A stretch of DNA of 47,311 nt from Desulfatibacillum sp. (GTDB taxonomy: Bacteria > Desulfobacterota > Desulfobacteria > Desulfobacterales > Desulfatibacillaceae), in assembly GCA_016342355.1 (NCBI GenBank), contig JAEINP010000040.1, positions 1 to 47,311 of the forward strand, in the 5' to 3' direction. A program made the translations under genes and the position numbers. Shown piece after piece: positions 7,637 through 37,697 of this stretch (the first letter of the stretch is position 1; each line of letters starts with the position of its first letter). The notes under the pieces are model-generated. The model saw nothing but the letters and a program-made list of their open reading frames with translations, was not told the DNA's origin and ran no database searches.

Positions 7637-7651
7637 TGGCACGGGGGTTGC
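7637..7651 (+). promoter_or_regulatory. Sigma-54 promoter of fliK-flgD-flgE
   Basis: TGGCACGGGGGTTGC matches the -24/-12 consensus (TGGCAC-N5-TTGC) exactly. Transcription would begin near 7662, about 74 bases before the fliK ATG. This placement argues against the in-frame ATG at 7661 as the translation start. Confidence 0.9.
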
Positions 7652-7735
7652 GATTAGGCCATGCAACACCGGCAGCATGAGTGCCTGTGGGAACAAAACA
7701 ATCGTTGGATGATTTATGCCACGAAGGGAGAAGAA

Positions 7736-10700
7736 ATGATAACGCAAATGCTGGCAGCAAACGGTTTTTTGGATGGCATTGTGTCCAGCAGGGCCAGGAC
7801 TGGCAAACAAGGGGACTTCCCTGGCCAGGGCCTGTTTTCTTCGCTGCTTACCAGGGCAAAGAATTCTTTGGAGGGGCAGGCCACAGGCGCCACCAGGATC
7901 GAAAGCCAGGGACCCGGAAATGTAGAGCAACTCAAGGAAAAGATGATCCGCTCCGGGGCTCCTTTGGATGAGATTACCCTGGAACCTGAGTCCGGTAATC
8001 ATGTGCGTGCTTTGCTTTTGCTGGATGGATATTCTCCTGACCAGGTGGAAGAAATAATGACCGGGTTCGGGGAAGACGGTGTTGGCATGAAAGCCTCGGT
8101 GCTTTTTTCCCGCATTTCCCAGCAAAAACCTGCAGATGCCATTTTACAACAAGCCAGGACCCTGGAAGTGAGCGCCATTCCCCATCTGGAAACAGCCCTT
8201 TTTATGGCGGGATTGGATGCGGAACAAAGCAAAGATATTATAAATAAATCTTTAACTGAAGACGGAAAAATTTCCCTGGAAAAGCTGGTGCAGAACCTGA
8301 AGATGGTTCTGGGCGACGTGGAACAGGCCGAACCTTCCACGGAGATGGCTCTGGGCATCGTTGAGGCCCTGAATCAGGCAGGAATTTCCCTGGATGGTTT
8401 GGATACAGCCCCCACTGGCCTAAAGGATCTGGTTAAAATCCTGGAAGGCCAGGCTATGGAAGATATTCCGGGCTTGCCCAAGATCACCCGGGCCAGGTTC
8501 CTGAGTCACCTCAATGGAGTTGTGAATAATTCCGTGGTTGAGGAAGAGGAAGGGGAGGGGCTGGTTCCCTTATCCAAGCTCACCGAAAGCAAGCTCAAGT
8601 TTTTTGACGAAGAAGACTTTGAGGACGTTCCCGCAATGTATGTGGAAATGGCTCTGCGCAGGATGGGCCTGGAATCTGCCGAGGCCGGACGCATAGCATC
8701 ACAGGTTTCGGCCGGAGGCGCAGGTAAAGGGCGCGTTTTGGTAGAGAACCTGGGGGCTGCAGGGAAATTCAAGGAAAGCCTTCCTACGGAAAGTGTTCCG
8801 GCTTTTGAGCGCCTGTTGCAAGAGATGGCCAGGAACGGCAAGCTCAACGAGACCGAACTCAATGTGGCGGATTTTTCCCGGATCTTTGCCTCCATGGATC
8901 CTCATGAGGCCATGGCAGGGATTAATCTCAAGGGTTCGGACGAATTGGAAACCCTGGCCGCGCTTCTTACCCACAGCTTGCAATCGGAAACCAAGGGCGG
9001 GGCTTCCTCGGAAACAACTCCTTACCTGGAAAAAATATCGGTTCCCCAGACTCTGGTGGAACTTCAGGATTTGCTCCAGGGCTTGGCGAAAAGCGGCAAA
9101 ACCCTTCCCCGGGCCGCTGTTAAGGATCTGGCTGAAGTCCTTAAGCAGGCAGGCGCGGAGCCGACCCTGGTTGATGGACTGATTACCCAGGCCAACACGG
9201 CCCAGGGTGAGGTGGACCCCGCCAAGCTGGCCAAGAGCATAGAAAAGGTTGCCCAAAGTGTTTTGGTTCTGGCAGCCCAGGAAGCGGATGCCAAAATAGA
9301 TACGGCCGTTAAAACAGCCGAGTTATCCCACAAATTCGCCGGGATCATGCAGGTTCTTCAAAACACCCGTTCCGGATTTCTTTCGGACGACGCCACCCAG
9401 TACATTGCCAAGGCCCTGGAAGACATGGGGGTTAAATCTCATGAGATCAATCAGGCTCTTTCCCAAAACAGGTTTCCCGCAAGGGGTGTGGACCCTGTGC
9501 CTGTGATAGAGGTGGTGAAGAAGATTGCCCAGCGTATGGGCATTGATTCCAATACCATAACGGAAGCCTCTATCCGTACCGGAATCCAGGATCCTGATGC
9601 AGGAGTCGTTCGGGTGGAGTCCAAGGGACAAACATTTGGCTTTTCTGATCAGGAAACCGCCAGGCAGGGGATGGAAACAGCCATAGCTTCTTCGGCGGCC
9701 AGGAAAGGCGCGGAACAAGGAAGCAGCTCCCCTGTCCAGGTTGCGCAGTCCGGCCAAGGGAAAGCGGGCACACTGACCCTGGCTGAAGCCGTGGACACGC
9801 AGGCAACTTCTTCCCGCGGAGTTCAGGAAGCGGGAGAGGGCGTTACCGTCACGGGCGATGCGAAAGTTACCGACAAAGCCTCCAAGGCCAATGAGACCCA
9901 GGCACAGGTTGGAGCCAGTACGGCCAAGGGTATGGACAGCAAACCAGAGCCCGGCATAGTCCGCCCAGGAACAATGGGCGAGTTTGCTTCCGGGTCTCCG
10001 GTAAAAAATGCTCCGGTGAACACGGATAGTCCTGTGAATCCCCAAAATCCACCCAAGGCGCCTGAACAAATGGCTGAAGGGCGGGAAGGCATTTCTGGGT
10101 CCGCCAAGGCAAATTCCGGCGTCAAAAGACCGGAAATCGCACCTGAAGCGCAGGCAGGCGTCAAGGCGCAGGCCAACGCTAAACCAGCCCAGGGACAACC
10201 GGAAGTGGTTGTCCAGGGAGGCGAGCGTGTCCATCATCAGGGCGGTGCGGCAGCCGGAAGTAATAATGTCGGCCAAACAACCCAGGTGAAGACTGTGGAA
10301 AATGTCCAGATGGAGAATCGTGACGGCCAGCGGGTGCAGGTGAAGACCAACGAAGTGTACATCCAGGCTCAGGCTGGGGCGGATACTGCGGAAACCGTTG
10401 AGGAGGCACTGGCAGGCTTTGTAAAGGGCGCTGCAGGTCTTCAAGCGGATCTGGGCGCTTCCCAGGCCAACAGGGAAAACGCTCGCAACGCAGCCACCCG
10501 GGCCGTAAATTCCCGGAACGCCCAAGGCCAAAAGGCTGTTGAAACAGGGGACTCTGCTCGTCCTGTGACGGAAAACGCAGGTGCCAAGGCGGACCCCCAG
10601 TTTGTCGAGACCCTGGAGAAAGCGTCGGCAGGAAAGGCGGGAGTGGAAAATGCGGTTCGGTCCGGTGGGAATGAAGCGGACCTGGATGCAAAAATTAATG

Positions 10701-11308
10701 TGAAAGCCTCCATGGCCCAGGACAAGGGCTTTGAGATGGCAGAGTCCCAGGCAGCCGCTGGCAAGGGAACCGCGGCGCCCCAAGGTAATGAAACCCAGGG
10801 AACCGTTCATTCTTACCAGCAGGAAGCGGCCCAAGCGGCCCGTGCGGGAGAAACTATCCCGGAACGGCCGGTCTTGCGTCCCTTTGAAGGGCAGATGGCT
10901 CAGCAGTTAAGTGGCCAGGTGGTCCAGTCCCTGAACAAACAGGAGAATCGGATCCGTTTACAACTGCATCCCAAGCAGCTTGGGGCGGTGGACGTGAACA
11001 TGAATCTGAAACATAACGTCCTTACCGTGGGAATGAGCGCGGAGACCGAGGCCGTGAAGGAAATTCTCATGTCTCATGTGGCGGAGTTGAAAAGCGCCCT
11101 GGCTGACCAGGGAATCGTGGTGGACAAGATAGAGGTCACTGTCAAGCAAAATCCGGAACAGAATCTTGCCCAACAACAACAGGGCCAAAGGCGGGGCCAG
11201 CAACCGGGAAAACAGGGCGGCCAGGGCAACGGATCTGCATCAAAGGGTTTTGTGGGGCTTACTCCCCCGAAATATGAGGCTGAAACCGGCCTGGATTTAA
11301 TGGCATAG
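7736..11308 (+). CDS. fliK: Flagellar hook-length control protein FliK, very long form
   Basis: Controls hook length and triggers the switch of the export gate through FlhB. Start ATG at 7736 (AAGGGAG five bases upstream) gives 1190 residues, about three times the E. coli protein. The family domain is at the C-terminus (about residues 1065-1140: NRIRLQLHPKQLGAVDVNM and the following strands), followed by a Gln/Gly-rich tail. Residues 640-1060 are low-complexity and rich in Ala, Gly, Gln and Glu, as expected of a flexible ruler. The N-terminal 600 residues are unusual: at least five degenerate helical repeats of about 40 residues (near 90-130, 150-191, 303-342, 465-507 and 557-600) share the pattern AL-x3-G ... 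G-x-hydrophobic ... L-x3-I. It is first in the sigma-54 unit with flgD and flgE. Confidence 0.9.
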   Translation: MITQMLAANGFLDGIVSSRARTGKQGDFPGQGLFSSLLTRAKNSLEGQATGATRIESQGPGNVEQLKEKMIRSGAPLDEITLEPESGNHVRALLLLDGYSPDQVEEIMTGFGEDGVGMKASVLFSRISQQKPADAILQQARTLEVSAIPHLETALFMAGLDAEQSKDIINKSLTEDGKISLEKLVQNLKMVLGDVEQAEPSTEMALGIVEALNQAGISLDGLDTAPTGLKDLVKILEGQAMEDIPGLPKITRARFLSHLNGVVNNSVVEEEEGEGLVPLSKLTESKLKFFDEEDFEDVPAMYVEMALRRMGLESAEAGRIASQVSAGGAGKGRVLVENLGAAGKFKESLPTESVPAFERLLQEMARNGKLNETELNVADFSRIFASMDPHEAMAGINLKGSDELETLAALLTHSLQSETKGGASSETTPYLEKISVPQTLVELQDLLQGLAKSGKTLPRAAVKDLAEVLKQAGAEPTLVDGLITQANTAQGEVDPAKLAKSIEKVAQSVLVLAAQEADAKIDTAVKTAELSHKFAGIMQVLQNTRSGFLSDDATQYIAKALEDMGVKSHEINQALSQNRFPARGVDPVPVIEVVKKIAQRMGIDSNTITEASIRTGIQDPDAGVVRVESKGQTFGFSDQETARQGMETAIASSAARKGAEQGSSSPVQVAQSGQGKAGTLTLAEAVDTQATSSRGVQEAGEGVTVTGDAKVTDKASKANETQAQVGASTAKGMDSKPEPGIVRPGTMGEFASGSPVKNAPVNTDSPVNPQNPPKAPEQMAEGREGISGSAKANSGVKRPEIAPEAQAGVKAQANAKPAQGQPEVVVQGGERVHHQGGAAAGSNNVGQTTQVKTVENVQMENRDGQRVQVKTNEVYIQAQAGADTAETVEEALAGFVKGAAGLQADLGASQANRENARNAATRAVNSRNAQGQKAVETGDSARPVTENAGAKADPQFVETLEKASAGKAGVENAVRSGGNEADLDAKINVKASMAQDKGFEMAESQAAAGKGTAAPQGNETQGTVHSYQQEAAQAARAGETIPERPVLRPFEGQMAQQLSGQVVQSLNKQENRIRLQLHPKQLGAVDVNMNLKHNVLTVGMSAETEAVKEILMSHVAELKSALADQGIVVDKIEVTVKQNPEQNLAQQQQGQRRGQQPGKQGGQGNGSASKGFVGLTPPKYEAETGLDLMA

Positions 11309-14529: not shown

Positions 14530-14544
14530 TGGCACGAAGGTTGC
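14530..14544 (+). promoter_or_regulatory. Sigma-54 promoter of the motA-to-flhB2 unit
   Basis: TGGCACGAAGGTTGC is a perfect -24/-12 element. Start of transcription is expected near 14556, about 33 bases before the motA ATG. No copy of the paired repeat seen upstream of fliK was found here. Confidence 0.9.
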
Positions 14545-21192: not shown

Positions 21193-22269
21193 GTGGCTGA
21201 TTCGCCAAACGAAGACAAAACCGAAGAACCTACCCCCAAAAAGCGGGATGATGCCCGGAAGAAAGGCCAAGTGGCCAAAAGCCGGGACCTTTCCTCTGTG
21301 GTGGTGCTCATGGCCGGGCTGGGGATCATGTACATGTTCGGGCCTTACATGCATTTCCATATTGTGGGCATGATGAAGAGCATTTTCGTCCTCAATGTCG
21401 CCGCCTGGGGAGTAGAGAATGTGACGCAGCTTGGCAAGGATGTAGTGAAGGAGTTCCTTTTGATCCTCACTCCCATGTTGGTGGGGGTTTTTGTGGTGGG
21501 TTTTGCCGCTGCCGCTTCCCAGGTCGGGTTTCATTTTTCGTGGGAGGCTGCAGCCCCCAAGTTTTCCAAGATCAATCCCATATCCGGCTTTGGGCGGATG
21601 TTTTCCAAACAAGCCTTGGTGGAACTGGCCAAGTCATTGGCAAAGCTCTTCATCGTGGGCTTTATTTCCTACCTTACCATAAAAGCGGAGATGGGAAACC
21701 TTATCCTCCTGGGCCAGATGGATGTGGCAAACACACTTGTGTATGTGCTCATGACAACCCTCAGGCTATTCATGAGGGTTGGTATCATCATGGTTTTTGT
21801 GGCTGTGTTGGATTTCGCATTTCAAAAATGGGATAATGAGCAAAAACTCAAGATGACCCGTCAGGAAGTCAAGGACGAATACAAACAGACAGATGGCGAT
21901 CCCATGGTTAAGGCCCGGATACGGCGTATCCAGATGGAAGCCTCCCGGCGCAGGATGATGGAGGAAGTCCCCAAGGCGGACGTGGTGATCACCAACCCCA
22001 TCCATCTGGCCCTGGCCATAAAATATAATGCCCTCAAGATGAACGCTCCCACTATTGTGGCCAAGGGCGCCGGGCCTGTGGCGGAAAAGATTAAAGAAGT
22101 TGCCCGGGAAAATGACGTTCCTATCGTCGAAAACAAAGAGTTGGCACGGGCCTTGTATAAAGCAATAGATATCGGCGATGAAGTACCGGTCGCCCTGTAC
22201 GAGGCGGTGGCGGAAATACTGGCCTATGTGTACGGGCTTAAACAAAACCGCGGTCGTCCCTTCTCCTAA
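21193..22269 (+). CDS. flhB: Flagellar export switch protein FlhB, with NPIH cleavage site
   Basis: Controls substrate switching of the export gate. 358 residues, GTG start at 21193. N-terminus EEPTPKKRDDARKKGQVAKS is canonical, then four transmembrane helices, then the cytoplasmic domain. Self-cleavage normally occurs between Asn and Pro of NPTH; here the site reads N268-P269-I270-H271, with Thr replaced by Ile. The flanking VVITNP and ALAIKYN are conserved, so cleavage is likely, but its rate could differ. A separate gene for a second FlhB C-domain lies at 30176. Confidence 0.96.
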   Translation: MADSPNEDKTEEPTPKKRDDARKKGQVAKSRDLSSVVVLMAGLGIMYMFGPYMHFHIVGMMKSIFVLNVAAWGVENVTQLGKDVVKEFLLILTPMLVGVFVVGFAAAASQVGFHFSWEAAAPKFSKINPISGFGRMFSKQALVELAKSLAKLFIVGFISYLTIKAEMGNLILLGQMDVANTLVYVLMTTLRLFMRVGIIMVFVAVLDFAFQKWDNEQKLKMTRQEVKDEYKQTDGDPMVKARIRRIQMEASRRRMMEEVPKADVVITNPIHLALAIKYNALKMNAPTIVAKGAGPVAEKIKEVARENDVPIVENKELARALYKAIDIGDEVPVALYEAVAEILAYVYGLKQNRGRPFS

Positions 22270-28485: not shown

Positions 28486-28986
28486 ATGTTGGAAAAATTT
28501 ACCATGGAATTTTGGATGATAAGCCAAGTGGTCATGGATGTGGTGCTGATCCTGGTGGTTTTTCTGGTGTGGAGGAAAATCTCCAAAGGCCCGGAAATCC
28601 CCAAAGAGGCGGCTCTCATGGCAATTTCCCGAGTGCTGGAGCCTGTTCTGGACGAAGCCCGGAAACTGGCGGACACTTTTGACGGACACCTTAATGAAAA
28701 GCGCGCCATCATCAATAAAATCAATCATGATCTGGACTCCAGAATCATCAGCCTGAATCTTTTATTGAAGCGTGCGGAAGGCTTGATGGCCCAGCAAAAA
28801 AGTCCCGGGCAAGGGGACACGAATGTCCAGTCTGACCACGTGGTGGACCTTCAACAAAAGGTGGTGGCATTGGATGCTAAAGGCATGAAGCCAGAGGAGA
28901 TCGCCACCCGGCTGCATATGCCCAGGGGCGAGGTGGACATGGTCATCAGCCTTAAACGCAAATTCGAAAAAATGGGAGAGGCGTGA
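28486..28986 (+). CDS. Membrane-anchored DUF2802-like protein
   Basis: 166 residues: one N-terminal transmembrane helix (about 14-32), a helical and probably coiled-coil middle (about 45-105), a polar linker, and a C-terminal segment VVALDAKGMKPEEIATRLHM followed by PRGEVDMVISL that looks like a small helix-turn-helix. This layout is that of the DUF2802-type proteins often found after fliA or the motility sigma operon. Function is unknown. Thirteen bases separate it from the small charged protein upstream. Confidence 0.75.
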   Translation: MLEKFTMEFWMISQVVMDVVLILVVFLVWRKISKGPEIPKEAALMAISRVLEPVLDEARKLADTFDGHLNEKRAIINKINHDLDSRIISLNLLLKRAEGLMAQQKSPGQGDTNVQSDHVVDLQQKVVALDAKGMKPEEIATRLHMPRGEVDMVISLKRKFEKMGEA

Positions 28987-29052: not shown

Positions 29053-30162
29053 ATGGCCATTCCCGTTGATCCGGGCAAGATTCGCCGTTTTGGCCCGGAT
29101 TTTTTACAATTGCCGGATTCCAAGGTAAAGATCACCTTCAGTCCCAAGGATATCCTTTCGGCCAGGGTGCTCAAGAACGTGGGACCCGGCCAGTTTCTCC
29201 TGTCCATACGCGGAAACCAGCTCATCGCCCAATCCTCTGCCGATCTTATTCCCGGCAAAGTGTATCTAATGGAAGTCAAGGCTACCGAGCCCGTTCCCAT
29301 ACTTGCCCTGGCAAAGGATACCCAGGCAGCCGATCAGGGAAAGGTTTTGGCAAAACTTGTGGATGGGCTGCGCCAGTCTCCCCTCAAGGATCTTATGGGC
29401 TTCCTGGACTCCAAGGGCGAAATTTCCTTGCCCAAGGCGGCGAGCCGGGAGGAATTGCAAACCCTTGCCGCCCTGGTTTCCCGTCTGAGTTTGGGAAGCG
29501 GCAAACCTGTGACGGCGGCGGCGATTCGCGCCTTTGTCCAGGACTCGGGAATCATGTGGGAGAGCAAATTAGGCGCCCAGGCAAACTTGTCCAGCCCCTT
29601 TCCTGCGCCCCAGGCTCTTGTGGAAAATGACTTGAAAGCGCTTGCCCTCCATCTTCTGTTACGCCCTGAAATCCAAAATTCCGCCCAGGGGGAAAAACTG
29701 GCCTCCTTTGTGGAAAGCCTCCAGGGTCTTCAATTAGCCAATGTGACAGCCATGGAGGAAAACGGGCGCTTTTTTTTGTCCATTCCATTCATGCAAGGTG
29801 GGGAATACCGTTTTGTTCAGTTAATGGCAGACCTTTCCCGGGAATCCTCGAATAAAGACGGAAAGGATAAGGACCGTTTGATTACCGCTTCCCTGTGCCT
29901 GGATCTGAGCGCTCTTGGGCCGGTGCGTGCGGATGCAGCCCTCCTGGGGAGTTTTTTGCGGGTGGAATTCACCCTTTCGTCCAGGGAAACCGCTGATTTT
30001 CTCAAGGCCCGTGCAGGCCGTTTGGAAAAAAGACTGGCCACCCACGGCGTGGTGCTCAGAGATCTCTCCTTTCGGGTGGAGGATCGTTCCTTTCTGGAAA
30101 ACATTTCCCTGGCTGACGAACTGTTTAATGATCCCCCCAACGGCTTGGATCTGGTGATATGA
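29053..30162 (+). CDS. FliK-like flagellar hook-length control domain protein (YlqG-like)
   Basis: 369 residues, no signal or membrane segment. The C-terminal part (about 230-350) fits the FliK C-terminal fold by eye: LDLSALGPVRADAALLGSFL, VEFTLSSRETADFLKARAG, RLEKRLATHGVVLRDLSF, to be compared with the LHPKQLGAV stretch in FliK. The N-terminal part is not recognised. The next gene encodes a free FlhB C-domain, matching the Bacillus YlqG-YlqH pair. A second export switch pair beside the standard FliK and FlhB is implied. The ribosome site before the ATG at 29053 is weak, so the start is less certain; the 66 bases before it hold nothing else. Confidence 0.8.
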   Translation: MAIPVDPGKIRRFGPDFLQLPDSKVKITFSPKDILSARVLKNVGPGQFLLSIRGNQLIAQSSADLIPGKVYLMEVKATEPVPILALAKDTQAADQGKVLAKLVDGLRQSPLKDLMGFLDSKGEISLPKAASREELQTLAALVSRLSLGSGKPVTAAAIRAFVQDSGIMWESKLGAQANLSSPFPAPQALVENDLKALALHLLLRPEIQNSAQGEKLASFVESLQGLQLANVTAMEENGRFFLSIPFMQGGEYRFVQLMADLSRESSNKDGKDKDRLITASLCLDLSALGPVRADAALLGSFLRVEFTLSSRETADFLKARAGRLEKRLATHGVVLRDLSFRVEDRSFLENISLADELFNDPPNGLDLVI

Positions 30163-30175
30163 GAGGTCAAATGAG

Positions 30176-30448
30176 ATGAAAAAATTCATCAAAAAGGCAG
30201 TGGCCCTCAAATATAACGCCTTGAAGGATCATGCCCCCCGGGTAACGGCCACGGGCAAGGGGATTACTGCGGAAAAAATCATCGAAGCGGCCCGAAAGCA
30301 TGGCGTACCTGTCCAGGAGGATCCTGATTTGGTGGAGGTTCTTTCCCGTCTGGACCTGGATGCTGAAATCCCAGCCGAGCTTTACATCGTGGTGGCGGAA
30401 CTTCTTGCCTTTGTGTACCAGGCCAATAAGGCAAAAATGAGCCGCTAG
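30176..30448 (+). CDS. FlhB C-terminal-domain protein (YlqH/FlhX-like)
   Basis: 90 residues without membrane helices. It aligns with the FlhB portion after the cleavage site: KAVALKYNALKDHAPRVTA against HLALAIKYNALKMNAPTIVA of the FlhB in this window, and further along PVQEDPDLVEVLSRLDLDAE. It lacks the NP(T/I)H site, starting where cleaved FlhB would start. Such stand-alone domains (Bacillus YlqH, Rhodobacter/Geobacter-type FlhX) can take the place of the FlhB C-domain in the switch. Paired with the FliK-like gene 13 bases upstream. Last gene before the sigma-54 promoter at 30580. Confidence 0.9.
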   Translation: MKKFIKKAVALKYNALKDHAPRVTATGKGITAEKIIEAARKHGVPVQEDPDLVEVLSRLDLDAEIPAELYIVVAELLAFVYQANKAKMSR

Positions 30449-30579: not shown

Positions 30580-30595
30580 TGGCATTGTGGTTGCA
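30580..30595 (+). promoter_or_regulatory. Sigma-54 promoter of flgF-flgG and following genes
   Basis: TGGCATTGTGGTTGCA fits TGGCAY-N5-TTGCA. Transcription should begin near 30607, about 32 bases before the flgF ATG. The flanking region (30449-30638) is AT-rich and otherwise empty. This places the distal rod and ring genes in a third sigma-54 unit. Confidence 0.88.
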
Positions 30596-35945: not shown

Positions 35946-37697
35946 ATGCCCGGTATCAGATCAGCCCTGGATATTGCGGTAGGGGCCATGGCCACCCATC
36001 AGTATGGCATGGATGTTGTCAGCCATAATGTGGCCAATGTGAACACGGAGGGCTATACCCTCCAGACGTCCATCAATAAAAGCAAGGAACCCCAGGCCTC
36101 AGGCGGTTTTATGTTTGGCCGGGGTGTGGAAACCTATGAAATCCGCCGCATGGTGGATGAAAATGTGGAAAAAAGGTTGCTGGAGTATAAGTCCAATCTG
36201 GCAACGGCCCAGGAAATTGAAACCTTTGGCAAGGTTCTGGACGGCTTGTTCAACGAGGTGGAAGGCAATGGACTGGGAGCCATGCTTTCGGATTTTTTCA
36301 ACACCTGGGAGGATTTGTCCCTCAATCCTGCGGGTACGGCGGAACGGTCGGTCCTCTATGAGCAGGCTTTGGGGCTTGCCCAATATATTGACGAACTGGA
36401 TGCGGCATTGACCGGGGAAGAGAAAAACCTGGGCACCAGCCTTCAGTCCGGAGTGGAGGCGGTGAACACACTCACTAAGCAGATAGCGGATCTTAACCGG
36501 CAGATCGTAGCGACTTCCCAGAACACTTCTCCCAACGATTTGTTGGATCAGCGCAATTATCTCATGTCCGAATTGGCCCAGTATGTGGATGTCAAGAGTT
36601 TTTCCCTAAATGACGGATCTGTGACGGTTTTGGGTCCCCGGGGTATCACCCTGGTGTTGGGAGCCGATAATTTTGAGTTGGCCCTGGATCAGGGGGAGAT
36701 TGTTTATGGCAAGGGAAGCCTTCGGGAACTTACCATTACCGATTATGTGGAAAAGGGACGCATGGGCGGTTGGCTGGAAATGCGGGATGGCATTGTCGGG
36801 GAGTTAAAGAGCAATTTAAATGAATTGTCCAAGGAACTGATCTGGGCGGTCAACTCCCAGCATTCCCAAGGTGTGGGGCTTACAGGCCTTACATCCACCA
36901 CGGGCTCTTACAAGGCTGCGGCCACCAATCAGCCCGTGGGATCAGCGTCTGCGGACCTGTTTTATGGTGATCGGATAACTGACGGCCAGTTTACCTTATG
37001 GGTTTATGACGCCAATGGGGATGTGGTCAATGCCGGTGGCACGAATATTGCTATAACAGCTAACGCCACCACCATGGACGACATTGCCACAGCCCTGGGT
37101 GTGGTGGATCTTAATGTGACGGCCTCCACTGTGGGCGGACAACTGAGCATCACGGCAAGTTCGGGGTATACTTTCGGGTTTACCGAGGACACGTCCGGCG
37201 CTCTGGCGGCTCTGGGAGTGAACACCTTCTTCACAGGAGAGGGAAGCTCCACTATGGGGATCCATGACACCATCTCCATGGATCGGAACATGATCGCGGC
37301 GGGAATGGCGGATTTGGCGACCGGAGATATCTCTTCAGGGAACAATGAAAACTCCTTGGGCATTGCCTCGTTGAAGAACACCAATATCGGGATCACCGAG
37401 TGGCAGGCCAACCGGATTGGGAGTGACAGTTCCATTACAACCACCACCACTCTGGAAGGGTATTACGCTTCCATGGTGAGTGCGTTGGGCGCCAGTTTGA
37501 ACTCTGCGGAACGCAACCGGGAGTTTTCTGAAAGCATGGTTCAGAATCTGGAGGCCGTGCGGGGCAGCGTGTCCGGGGTTTCCCTGGATGAGGAAATGGC
37601 CAAGTTGATCCAGCTGCAACAGTCCTATTCTGCGGCAGCCAAGCTCATCATGACCATGGACGAGATTTTTCAGACCCTCATGACCATTAAGAGCTAA
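35946..37697 (+). CDS. flgK: Hook-filament junction protein FlgK (HAP1)
   Basis: 583 residues. N-terminal ALDIAVGAMATHQYGMDVVS and HNVANVNTEGYTLQ are canonical; the C-terminus SGVSLDEEMAKLIQLQQSYS and IMTMDEIFQTLMTIKS completes the D0/D1 helices. The middle (about 340-450) is a Thr/Ala/Gly-rich variable region. Joins hook and filament after FlgD leaves. Confidence 0.96.
   Translation: MPGIRSALDIAVGAMATHQYGMDVVSHNVANVNTEGYTLQTSINKSKEPQASGGFMFGRGVETYEIRRMVDENVEKRLLEYKSNLATAQEIETFGKVLDGLFNEVEGNGLGAMLSDFFNTWEDLSLNPAGTAERSVLYEQALGLAQYIDELDAALTGEEKNLGTSLQSGVEAVNTLTKQIADLNRQIVATSQNTSPNDLLDQRNYLMSELAQYVDVKSFSLNDGSVTVLGPRGITLVLGADNFELALDQGEIVYGKGSLRELTITDYVEKGRMGGWLEMRDGIVGELKSNLNELSKELIWAVNSQHSQGVGLTGLTSTTGSYKAAATNQPVGSASADLFYGDRITDGQFTLWVYDANGDVVNAGGTNIAITANATTMDDIATALGVVDLNVTASTVGGQLSITASSGYTFGFTEDTSGALAALGVNTFFTGEGSSTMGIHDTISMDRNMIAAGMADLATGDISSGNNENSLGIASLKNTNIGITEWQANRIGSDSSITTTTTLEGYYASMVSALGASLNSAERNREFSESMVQNLEAVRGSVSGVSLDEEMAKLIQLQQSYSAAAKLIMTMDEIFQTLMTIKS

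What the first reader, a model, noticed from the sequence alone, without database searches (positions are those of the whole stretch)
29053..30448. Second FliK-like / FlhB-C-domain pair inside the flagellar operon
Seen directly: a 369-residue protein whose C-terminal part fits the FliK switch domain, followed 13 bases later by a 90-residue free FlhB C-domain that starts just where self-cleaved FlhB would start. Both standard partners (FliK at 7736, FlhB at 21193) are also present. Bacillus YlqG/YlqH is a known comparable pair, and YlqH can work in place of the FlhB C-domain. Inference: the organism has a spare or staged export-specificity switch, perhaps tied to its very long FliK. A dedicated partner pair with the NPIH-type FlhB is possible.
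Basis: partly seen in the sequence, partly recalled or inferred. Interest (0 to 1): 0.72.

Follow-up and report, generated by a model that had tools for sequence, protein, structure and literature searches.

The report
Second flagellar export-switch gene pair (FliK2–FlhX)
Beside its normal flagellum export switch, this bacterium carries a second, smaller pair of switch proteins, and the same pair recurs side by side in many kinds of bacteria, which suggests a poorly studied second lock and key for building flagella.

Summary
Window 29053-30162 encodes a 369-aa protein with a FliK switch domain (Pfam Flg_hook, 37.0 bits, cut-off 29.8). Thirteen bases later, 30176-30448 encodes a 90-aa stand-alone FlhB C-domain (FlhX; flhB_rel, 112.9 bits, just under the 117.35 cut-off). 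Normal FliK and FlhB are also present.

The pair is not peculiar to this genome. Among 40 sampled genomes (window's own and relatives), 13 of the 16 with FlhB-type hits carry both genes adjacent; the other 3 have one FlhB and one FliK. In a wider set, 60 of 69 stand-alone FlhX loci have a FliK-like gene directly upstream, against 0 of 11 full-length FlhB loci (one without upstream DNA). FlhX without FliK2 also occurs.

AlphaFold shows FliK2 as compact: OB-like barrel, helices, switch domain. FlhX keeps the FlhB pocket for early substrates but forms its own branch.

Best reading, inferred: FlhX is a second, replaceable FlhB lock and FliK2 its dedicated key. Links to NPIH or to a very long FliK fail. 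It is the YlqG/YlqH, flhX-fliK kind: known parts, barely studied as a unit.

The parts
29053..30162 (+). FliK2: FliK-like protein, 369 aa (OB-like barrel, helical middle, T3S4 switch domain, hydrophobic C-terminal tail)
   Evidence: PF02120 37.0 bits; AlphaFold mean pLDDT 82.7; Foldseek 5cuk and 2rrl, probability 1.00
29152..29310 (+). N-terminal OB-like beta barrel of FliK2, residues 34-86
   Evidence: AlphaFold strands; OB-fold proteins such as aIF1A and IF1 in Foldseek; VIA-align Z 5.6-7.2 over about residues 25-97, below 8 and so common-fold level only
29767..30078 (+). C-terminal beta region of FliK2, residues 239-342, containing the T3S4 switch domain (Pfam match 272-344)
30145..30159 (+). 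Last five residues of FliK2 (LDLVI), same pattern as the end of the standard FliK
   Evidence: pattern in 13 of 13 FliK2 and 16 of 16 FliK1 of the 40-genome sample, 33 of 60 in the wider set, 7 of 269 predicted neighbour genes; pattern chosen after seeing the tails
30176..30448 (+). FlhX: stand-alone FlhB C-terminal domain, 90 aa
   Evidence: PF01312 C-terminal part and TIGR00789; FlhB chains in the PDB
30233..30238 (+). FlhX A20-P21, equivalent to Salmonella FlhB A286-P287 (early-substrate pocket)
   Evidence: alignment to 36hu chain numbering; conservation; pocket from passages of PMC9307174
30395..30406 (+). FlhX A74 to L77, equivalent to FlhB A341 to L344 (early-substrate pocket)
28486..28986 (+). 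DUF6115-like protein directly upstream of FliK2; recurrent neighbour of the pair
   Evidence: PF19610 28.4 bits, cut-off 27; DUF6115 in 12 of 46 upstream genes scanned
21193..22269 (+). Full-length FlhB (cleavage motif NPIH)
   Evidence: PF01312 E 2.1e-132
7736..11308 (+). Standard long FliK (longest ORF starts at 7661)
   Evidence: PF02120 66.7 bits; start choice
30580..30594 (+). Sigma-54-type promoter-like site between FlhX and the following rod-type gene; if real, the pair ends a transcription unit
   Evidence: pattern search, 4 matches in the window against 0.41 expected; consensus recalled, function not shown

Best explanation
[quoted passage not shown] Shown by sequence and model: FlhX is a free FlhB C-domain from its own branch that keeps the early-substrate pocket; FliK2 has a T3S4 switch domain and a FliK-like C-terminal tail on a compact predicted body; the two genes are usually adjacent. 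Inferred: FlhX docks on the membrane-bound FlhB stub in place of the native cleaved C-domain (which FliK ejects at the switch in Salmonella, PMC13344023) and so acts as a replacement lock that restores or holds early-substrate export. FliK2 is the dedicated key that engages FlhX through its T3S4 domain and tail and removes it, probably without measuring hook length.
For: Adjacency: 13 of 13 stand-alone FlhX in the 40-genome sample, while the 3 FlhB genomes without FlhX have one FliK each. 60 of 69 stand-alone FlhX loci of the wider set by profile (E <= 0.01) against 0 of 11 full FlhB loci, one of which (L141) has no upstream DNA. Phylum sample of 296: two FlhB-type hits go with two FliK-type hits, Fisher p 9e-20, not corrected for kinship. 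FlhX and FlhB C-domains separate fully, 82 against 27, support 0.934. Pocket positions A286/P287/A341/L344: 88/100/100/100% of 82 FlhX (pocket in passages of PMC9307174). Tail pattern 13 of 13 and 33 of 60 against 7 of 269; PMC13344023, section 14, proposes that FliK's last five residues act on the FlhB C-domain. The same order of domains is modelled in a Bacillus FliK2. Whole-protein distances: FliK2-FlhX r 0.78, FliK1-FlhB 0.76, crossed 0.50-0.60. 36 of 41 genomes checked (of the 69 loci) also have an FlhB-type ORF of at least 345 aa.
Against: FlhX occurs without FliK2: 3 of 69 loci, and 15 of 24 fetched discordant phylum genomes. One genome (G223) has FliK2 without FlhX. FlhX lacks Pro-Thr-His and differs from FlhB at other surface positions, so docking may fail. 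The tail match is only 33 of 60 in the wider set and the pattern was chosen after viewing. Correlated divergence (n = 13, linked genes): using only the switch domain, FliK2-FlhX is 0.68 against 0.67 with full FlhB, FliK1-FliK2 is 0.79, and the crossed partial FliK2-FlhB C is 0.44. No ruler FliK was folded as control, and 271 residues precede the Pfam-matched switch domain, so a ruler is not excluded. FliK2 is 350 to 850 aa long among the 13. The lock-removal model is from Salmonella, which was not searched here for the pair.
Confidence: 0.4

Rival explanations
1. Passive spare part: FlhX only backs up a lost or damaged FlhB C-domain, and FliK2 is a FliK paralogue kept for redundancy, with no separate stage or partner specificity.
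For: The title of Wand et al. 2006, seen in reference lists only, calls HP1575 a 'spare part'. FlhX keeps the substrate pocket. FlhX stands without FliK2 in several lineages. The switch domain of FliK2 follows FlhX and full FlhB equally (0.68 and 0.67).
Against: A branch distinct from FlhB in many kinds of bacteria, tight adjacency, and an OB-like domain in FliK2 in two distant lineages.
Confidence: 0.26
2. Early-stage checkpoint or decoy: soluble FlhX binds the recognition motif of early subunits (rod, hook) in the cytoplasm and FliK2 releases them, timing rod or hook export instead of replacing the C-domain at the gate.
For: FlhX keeps the pocket positions and is made without a membrane part. 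11 of 33 downstream genes scanned match the FlgE/F/G D1 domain.
Against: In the window a sigma-54-type site separates FlhX from the rod-type gene. In 9 of 46 loci the upstream gene is RNase HII, not a flagellar gene. No binding data.
Confidence: 0.17
3. FliK2 acts on both FlhX and the native FlhB C-domain as a second, length-blind FliK, for example to limit the time of hook growth.
For: Same T3S4 family and tail pattern as FliK1; partial correlation of FliK2 with the FlhB C-domain 0.44, and FliK1-FliK2 switch-domain correlation 0.79.
Against: FlhX and FlhB differ consistently at some positions, e.g. K/R in 92% of FlhB against I/L/V in 93% of FlhX; whole FliK2 follows FlhX (0.78) more than the FlhB C-domain (0.50).
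Confidence: 0.12
4. FliK2 binds RNA through its OB-like barrel and FlhX is its partner in translation control, with only a distant link to the flagellum.
For: OB folds of IF1/S1 type are the main structural neighbours of the N-terminal domain; RNase HII and UPF0102 neighbours in part of the loci.
Against: Z below 8 shows only a common fold. 36 of 41 genomes checked have a full-size FlhB-type ORF, and here the pair lies among flagellar genes. A shared fold does not show RNA binding.
Confidence: 0.05

Closest known systems
Bacillus YlqG/YlqH (names and locus recalled)
   Same: Adjacent FliK-like and FlhB-C genes; a Bacillus marasmi FliK2 is modelled with the same order OB barrel, helices, T3S4 domain at lower confidence; RNase HII is the upstream gene in 9 of 46 scanned loci
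   Different: In the window the pair lies among flagellar genes, after a DUF6115-like gene and before a FlgF/G-type gene
FlhX / HP1575 'spare part' of Helicobacter pylori
   Same: Stand-alone FlhB C-domain homologue (title of Wand et al. 2006)
   Different: I saw only the title in reference lists; its neighbour genes were not examined
flhX-fliK of Nitratiruptor (Campylobacterota), PMC9321776
   Same: Names the two genes together, apart from the main flagellar cluster (passage)
   Different: No function or second-FliK reading in the passages seen
NCBIfam TIGR00789 flhB_rel
   Same: Best NCBIfam match of FlhX, residues 5-85
   Different: 112.9 bits, below the curated cut-off of 117.35
Salmonella FliK / FlhB-CCD switch (PMC13344023)
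   Same: T3S4 domain, last-five-residue tail, early-substrate pocket
   Different: There one FliK acts on the self-cleaved C-domain of FlhB; here FlhX is made as a free protein with its own FliK-like neighbour

Membership tests
FliK / Flg_hook (T3S4) family | C-terminal switch domain | tested here: met
   PF02120 37.0 bits, cut-off 29.8; 5cuk and 2rrl, probability 1.00
FliK / Flg_hook (T3S4) family | Hydrophobic last five residues as in FliK | tested here: met
   LDLVI; 13 of 13 FliK2, 16 of 16 FliK1, 7 of 269 neighbours
FliK ruler protein (hook length) | Long flexible N-terminal ruler and linker | tested here: inconclusive
   Compact model, only residues 1-23 and 362-369 in runs below pLDDT 50, but no ruler FliK was folded as control and 271 residues precede the Pfam match
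FliK ruler protein (hook length) | Secreted during hook growth | not testable with these tools
   No secretion assay
FlhX / TIGR00789 flhB_rel | Stand-alone FlhB C-domain without membrane part | tested here: met
   90 aa, PF01312 positions 262-335 of 335 only
FlhX / TIGR00789 flhB_rel | Score above the curated cut-off | tested here: not met
   112.9 against 117.35 bits; 0 of 296 phylum genomes and 0 of 50 genomes pass, 2 of 14 control genomes do
FlhB (full protein) | Membrane domain and NPTH self-cleavage site | tested here: not met
   FlhX has neither
FlhB C-domain (FlhB-CC) | Early-substrate pocket A286, P287, A341, L344 | tested here: met
   A20, P21, A74, L77; 88-100% conserved in 82 FlhX
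FlhB C-domain (FlhB-CC) | Docks on the FlhB membrane stub | not testable with these tools
   No complex prediction or assay
YlqG/YlqH-type pair | Adjacent FliK-like gene then FlhX, same strand | tested here: met
   Window; 60 of 69 loci

The most novel reading that the evidence does not exclude
Many kinds of flagellated bacteria carry a second, self-contained export lock and key: FlhX is a re-loadable FlhB C-domain that can reset the export gate to early mode after the native lock has been thrown out, and FliK2 is a ruler-less key specific to it. The switch, described as irreversible in Salmonella (PMC13344023), would then be reversible or two-staged in these bacteria, for example to repair or restart a hook.
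Probability: 0.2. Interest if true: 0.8.

Novelty: new member of a known kind. Interest (0 to 1): 0.5.

Why it matters
PMC13344023 (2026) describes the Salmonella switch as irreversible removal of the FlhB C-domain by FliK. If FlhX is a second, free C-domain with its own key, many bacteria would have a resettable or two-stage form, and FlhX would give a simple handle to test whether the mere presence of a C-domain at the gate sets early export. In the papers I could search the pair is named only in passing (flhX-fliK, PMC9321776, passage); no study of it as a unit turned up. The library holds open-licence papers only, so this is weak evidence of absence.

Tried and rejected
A link with the NPIH FlhB: rejected, because the genus-mate with the same pair has NPTH. 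A link with very long FliK: rejected. Recent duplication of the local FlhB: rejected, as all 82 FlhX separate from 27 FlhB C-domains (86 columns, support 0.934, FlhB sampling modest). Nine stand-alone FlhX loci had no first-pass FliK hit: L121 (E 4e-19) and L133 (8.5e-5, E-values for a set of six sequences; PF02120 E 3.8e-10 at that place) are FliK2; four Alicyclobacillus ORFs are only likely (pairwise hhalign, probability 68%, E 4.8e-5); L083, L110 and L136 have none. Mixed FliK2/FlhX alignments put the FliK2 rows in the wrong place when seven or more FlhX rows were used. A complex prediction was not obtained. VIA-align listed no FliK C-domain among its 50 rows, most of them over residues 25-97. 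In the Foldseek list of the Bacillus model the best E-values are unrelated proteins of low probability; 2rrl (probability 1.00, E 0.086) and 5cuk (0.98, E 0.025) are lower in the list.

Rows dropped or not given: two of the 26 discordant phylum genomes (G237, G311) were not fetched, as their places were not listed; searches had 41 of the 69 stand-alone loci and 9 of the 11 full FlhB loci; the fold alignment has 38 locus FliK2 of the 60; neighbour scans had 46 upstream and 33 downstream genes on the same strand within a size range. In 8 of the 46 no FliK2 had been recognised, so the gene scanned is the one next to FlhX, and family counts can overlap. FliK1 sequences are cut by the locus edge; only their last 150 residues were used for distances.

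Full report
Observation. FliK2, 369 aa, matches Flg_hook at residues 272-344 (37.0 bits, cut-off 29.8) and no NCBIfam model at E <= 1. FlhX, 90 aa, matches only the C-terminal part of the FlhB family (E 1.1e-18) and TIGR00789 flhB_rel (112.9 bits, just under 117.35); FlhB chains are its best sequence matches in the PDB. The own genome has two matches of each family and no third at E <= 0.001.

Relatives. In a sample of 40 genomes (own included), 16 have FlhB-type hits. Thirteen of these have a stand-alone FlhX, and all 13 have a second FliK-type gene directly upstream on the same strand, with spacings from -8 to 113 bases; three of these second FliK hits (G010, G021, G024) are under the Pfam cut-off. 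The other 3 genomes (G032, G036, G038) have one FlhB and one FliK. Two further relatives (G006, G007) have a weak sub-cut-off Flg_hook hit and no FlhB-type hit.

Phylum sample. Of 296 genomes, 188 have FlhB-type hits: 93 have two or more of both types, 26 two FlhB-type and one FliK-type, 4 one and two, 51 one and one, 13 one and none, 1 two and none (Fisher p 9e-20). A second FlhB-type hit was not in each case checked to be stand-alone, and kinship is not corrected for. Of the 26 discordant genomes 24 were fetched: 8 have a divergent FliK2 directly upstream of FlhX, 1 has one about 1.1 kb upstream, 15 have none. Of the four reverse cases, G171 and G211 appear to hold the adjacent pair and lack a recognised full FlhB, in G118 the contig ends just after FliK2, and G223 has FliK2 with no FlhX downstream.

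Wider set. A FliK-like ORF lies directly upstream in 60 of 69 by an iterated profile at E <= 0.01 (55 of 60 within 30 bases, median 1.5, all within 150) and in 0 of 11 full FlhB, of which L141 has no upstream DNA. Of the nine misses two are FliK2, four likely, three lack it. Record titles name, among others, Desulfobacula, Brevibacillus, Heliobacterium, Hydrogenedentota, Nitrospirae, Chloroflexota, Planctomycetota, Margulisiibacteriota, Shewanella and Vogesella. The scan was seeded with FlhX, so it does not measure how common the pair is. For 41 of the 69 loci the whole genome was searched: 36 have an FlhB-type ORF of at least 345 aa; the five without are MAG records by their titles.

What the proteins look like. 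The AlphaFold model of FliK2 (39 sequences, mean pLDDT 82.7, pTM 0.71) has a low-confidence start (1-23), an OB-like barrel (34-86), helices (92-237), a C-terminal beta region with the T3S4 domain (239-342) and a low-confidence tail. Foldseek finds the PscP switch domain and the FliK C-domain with probability 1.00 but modest E-values (2.4e-3, 0.12), and OB folds such as aIF1A and IF1. A Bacillus marasmi FliK2 gives the same order of parts at lower confidence (mean pLDDT 70.4, pTM 0.43). No ruler FliK was folded as control; 271 residues precede the Pfam match, and members of up to 850 aa exist, so 'ruler-less' is a reading, not a result. For comparison, passages of PMC6972891 give Salmonella FliK 405 residues, with a ruler domain and flexible linker.

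Tail and pocket. The last five residues follow phi-x-phi-x-[AVIG] in 13 of 13 FliK2 and 16 of 16 FliK1 of the 40-genome sample, in 33 of 60 FliK2 of the wider set, and in 7 of 269 predicted neighbouring genes; the pattern was chosen after seeing the tails. In that sample FliK1 ends in Ala in 16 of 16 and FliK2 in Val or Ile in 11 of 13. PMC13344023 (abstract, passages and sections 7 and 14 seen) proposes that FliK's last five residues engage the FlhB C-domain and eject it, and reports that without the C-domain hook protein is not exported. FlhX positions equal to FlhB A286, P287, A341 and L344 are kept in 88, 100, 100 and 100% of 82 FlhX (pocket from passages of PMC9307174). Elsewhere FlhX differs from FlhB: a K/R position (92% of FlhB) is I/L/V in 93% of FlhX, and the LAR..Y[KR] stretch is changed.

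Descent. On a tree of 109 C-domains all 27 FlhB fall on one side and all 82 FlhX on the other (support 0.934, 86 columns), so FlhX is not a recent copy of the local FlhB. In 13 genomes whole FliK2 follows FlhX (r 0.78) more than full FlhB (0.60) or its C-domain (0.50), and the FliK1 end follows full FlhB (0.76) more than the FlhB C-domain (0.57) or FlhX (0.51). With the FliK2 switch domain alone the difference vanishes (0.68 FlhX, 0.67 full FlhB), and the FliK1 and FliK2 switch domains follow each other at 0.79. Partial correlations: FliK2-FlhX 0.65, FliK1-FlhB C 0.54, FliK2-FlhB C 0.44, FliK1-FlhX 0.26. Gene linkage could produce part of this; I take it as weak support only.

Setting. Upstream genes in 46 scanned loci: DUF6115 12, RNase HII 9, DUF2802 6, PilZ 4 (counts can overlap); downstream in 33: FlgE/F/G-type D1 domain 11, UPF0102 5. 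In the window the upstream gene is DUF6115-like (28.4 bits, cut-off 27), the gene after FlhX is of the FlgE/F/G family, and a sigma-54-type site (30580-30594) lies between.

Mechanism and literature. Shown: conservation, frequent adjacency, predicted fold, pocket. Inferred: FlhX replaces the ejected FlhB C-domain and FliK2 removes it. flhX-fliK is named in one Campylobacterota paper (passage); FlhX is listed in an Actinobacteria paper (passages); searches for ylqG/ylqH and for FlhX with FliK gave no functional study. The library is open-licence only. Wand et al. 2006 could not be read; only its title was seen.

Noticed in passing
window 28486-28986: A DUF6115-like gene sits directly upstream of FliK2; DUF6115 occurs in 12 and DUF2802 in 6 of 46 scanned upstream genes (counts can overlap), so it may be a third member of the module.
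   Followed up: partly
L029, L019, L017 (full FlhB of G022, G016, G032); L015 (G036): The FlhB cleavage motif reads NPTR instead of NPTH in three of 16 genomes, two of which carry the pair; NPVH in a fourth.
   Followed up: no
L184 (G223): A FliK2 gene with no FlhX downstream in a 1.7 Mb genome rated 100% complete.
   Followed up: partly
L153, L154, L156-L159, L161-L163, L166, L168-L170, L174, L175: Fifteen phylum genomes with stand-alone FlhX but no FliK2 found in the 2.2 kb upstream; in L163, L168 and L170 a gene of about 550 aa of another kind is there.
   Followed up: partly
window 7637-7651, 14530-14544, 37037-37051: Further sigma-54-type sites; four in the window against 0.41 expected. 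The first lies before the long FliK and favours its start at 7736; the last lies inside the 35946-37697 ORF.
   Followed up: partly
window 7736-11308: Very long standard FliK (about 1190 aa; genus-mate open frame 1256, the other 11 pair genomes 437-792), which would predict an unusually long hook.
   Followed up: no
window 29152-29310: The N-terminal barrel of FliK2 resembles OB folds of IF1/S1 type; its role in a switch protein is unexplained.
   Followed up: partly
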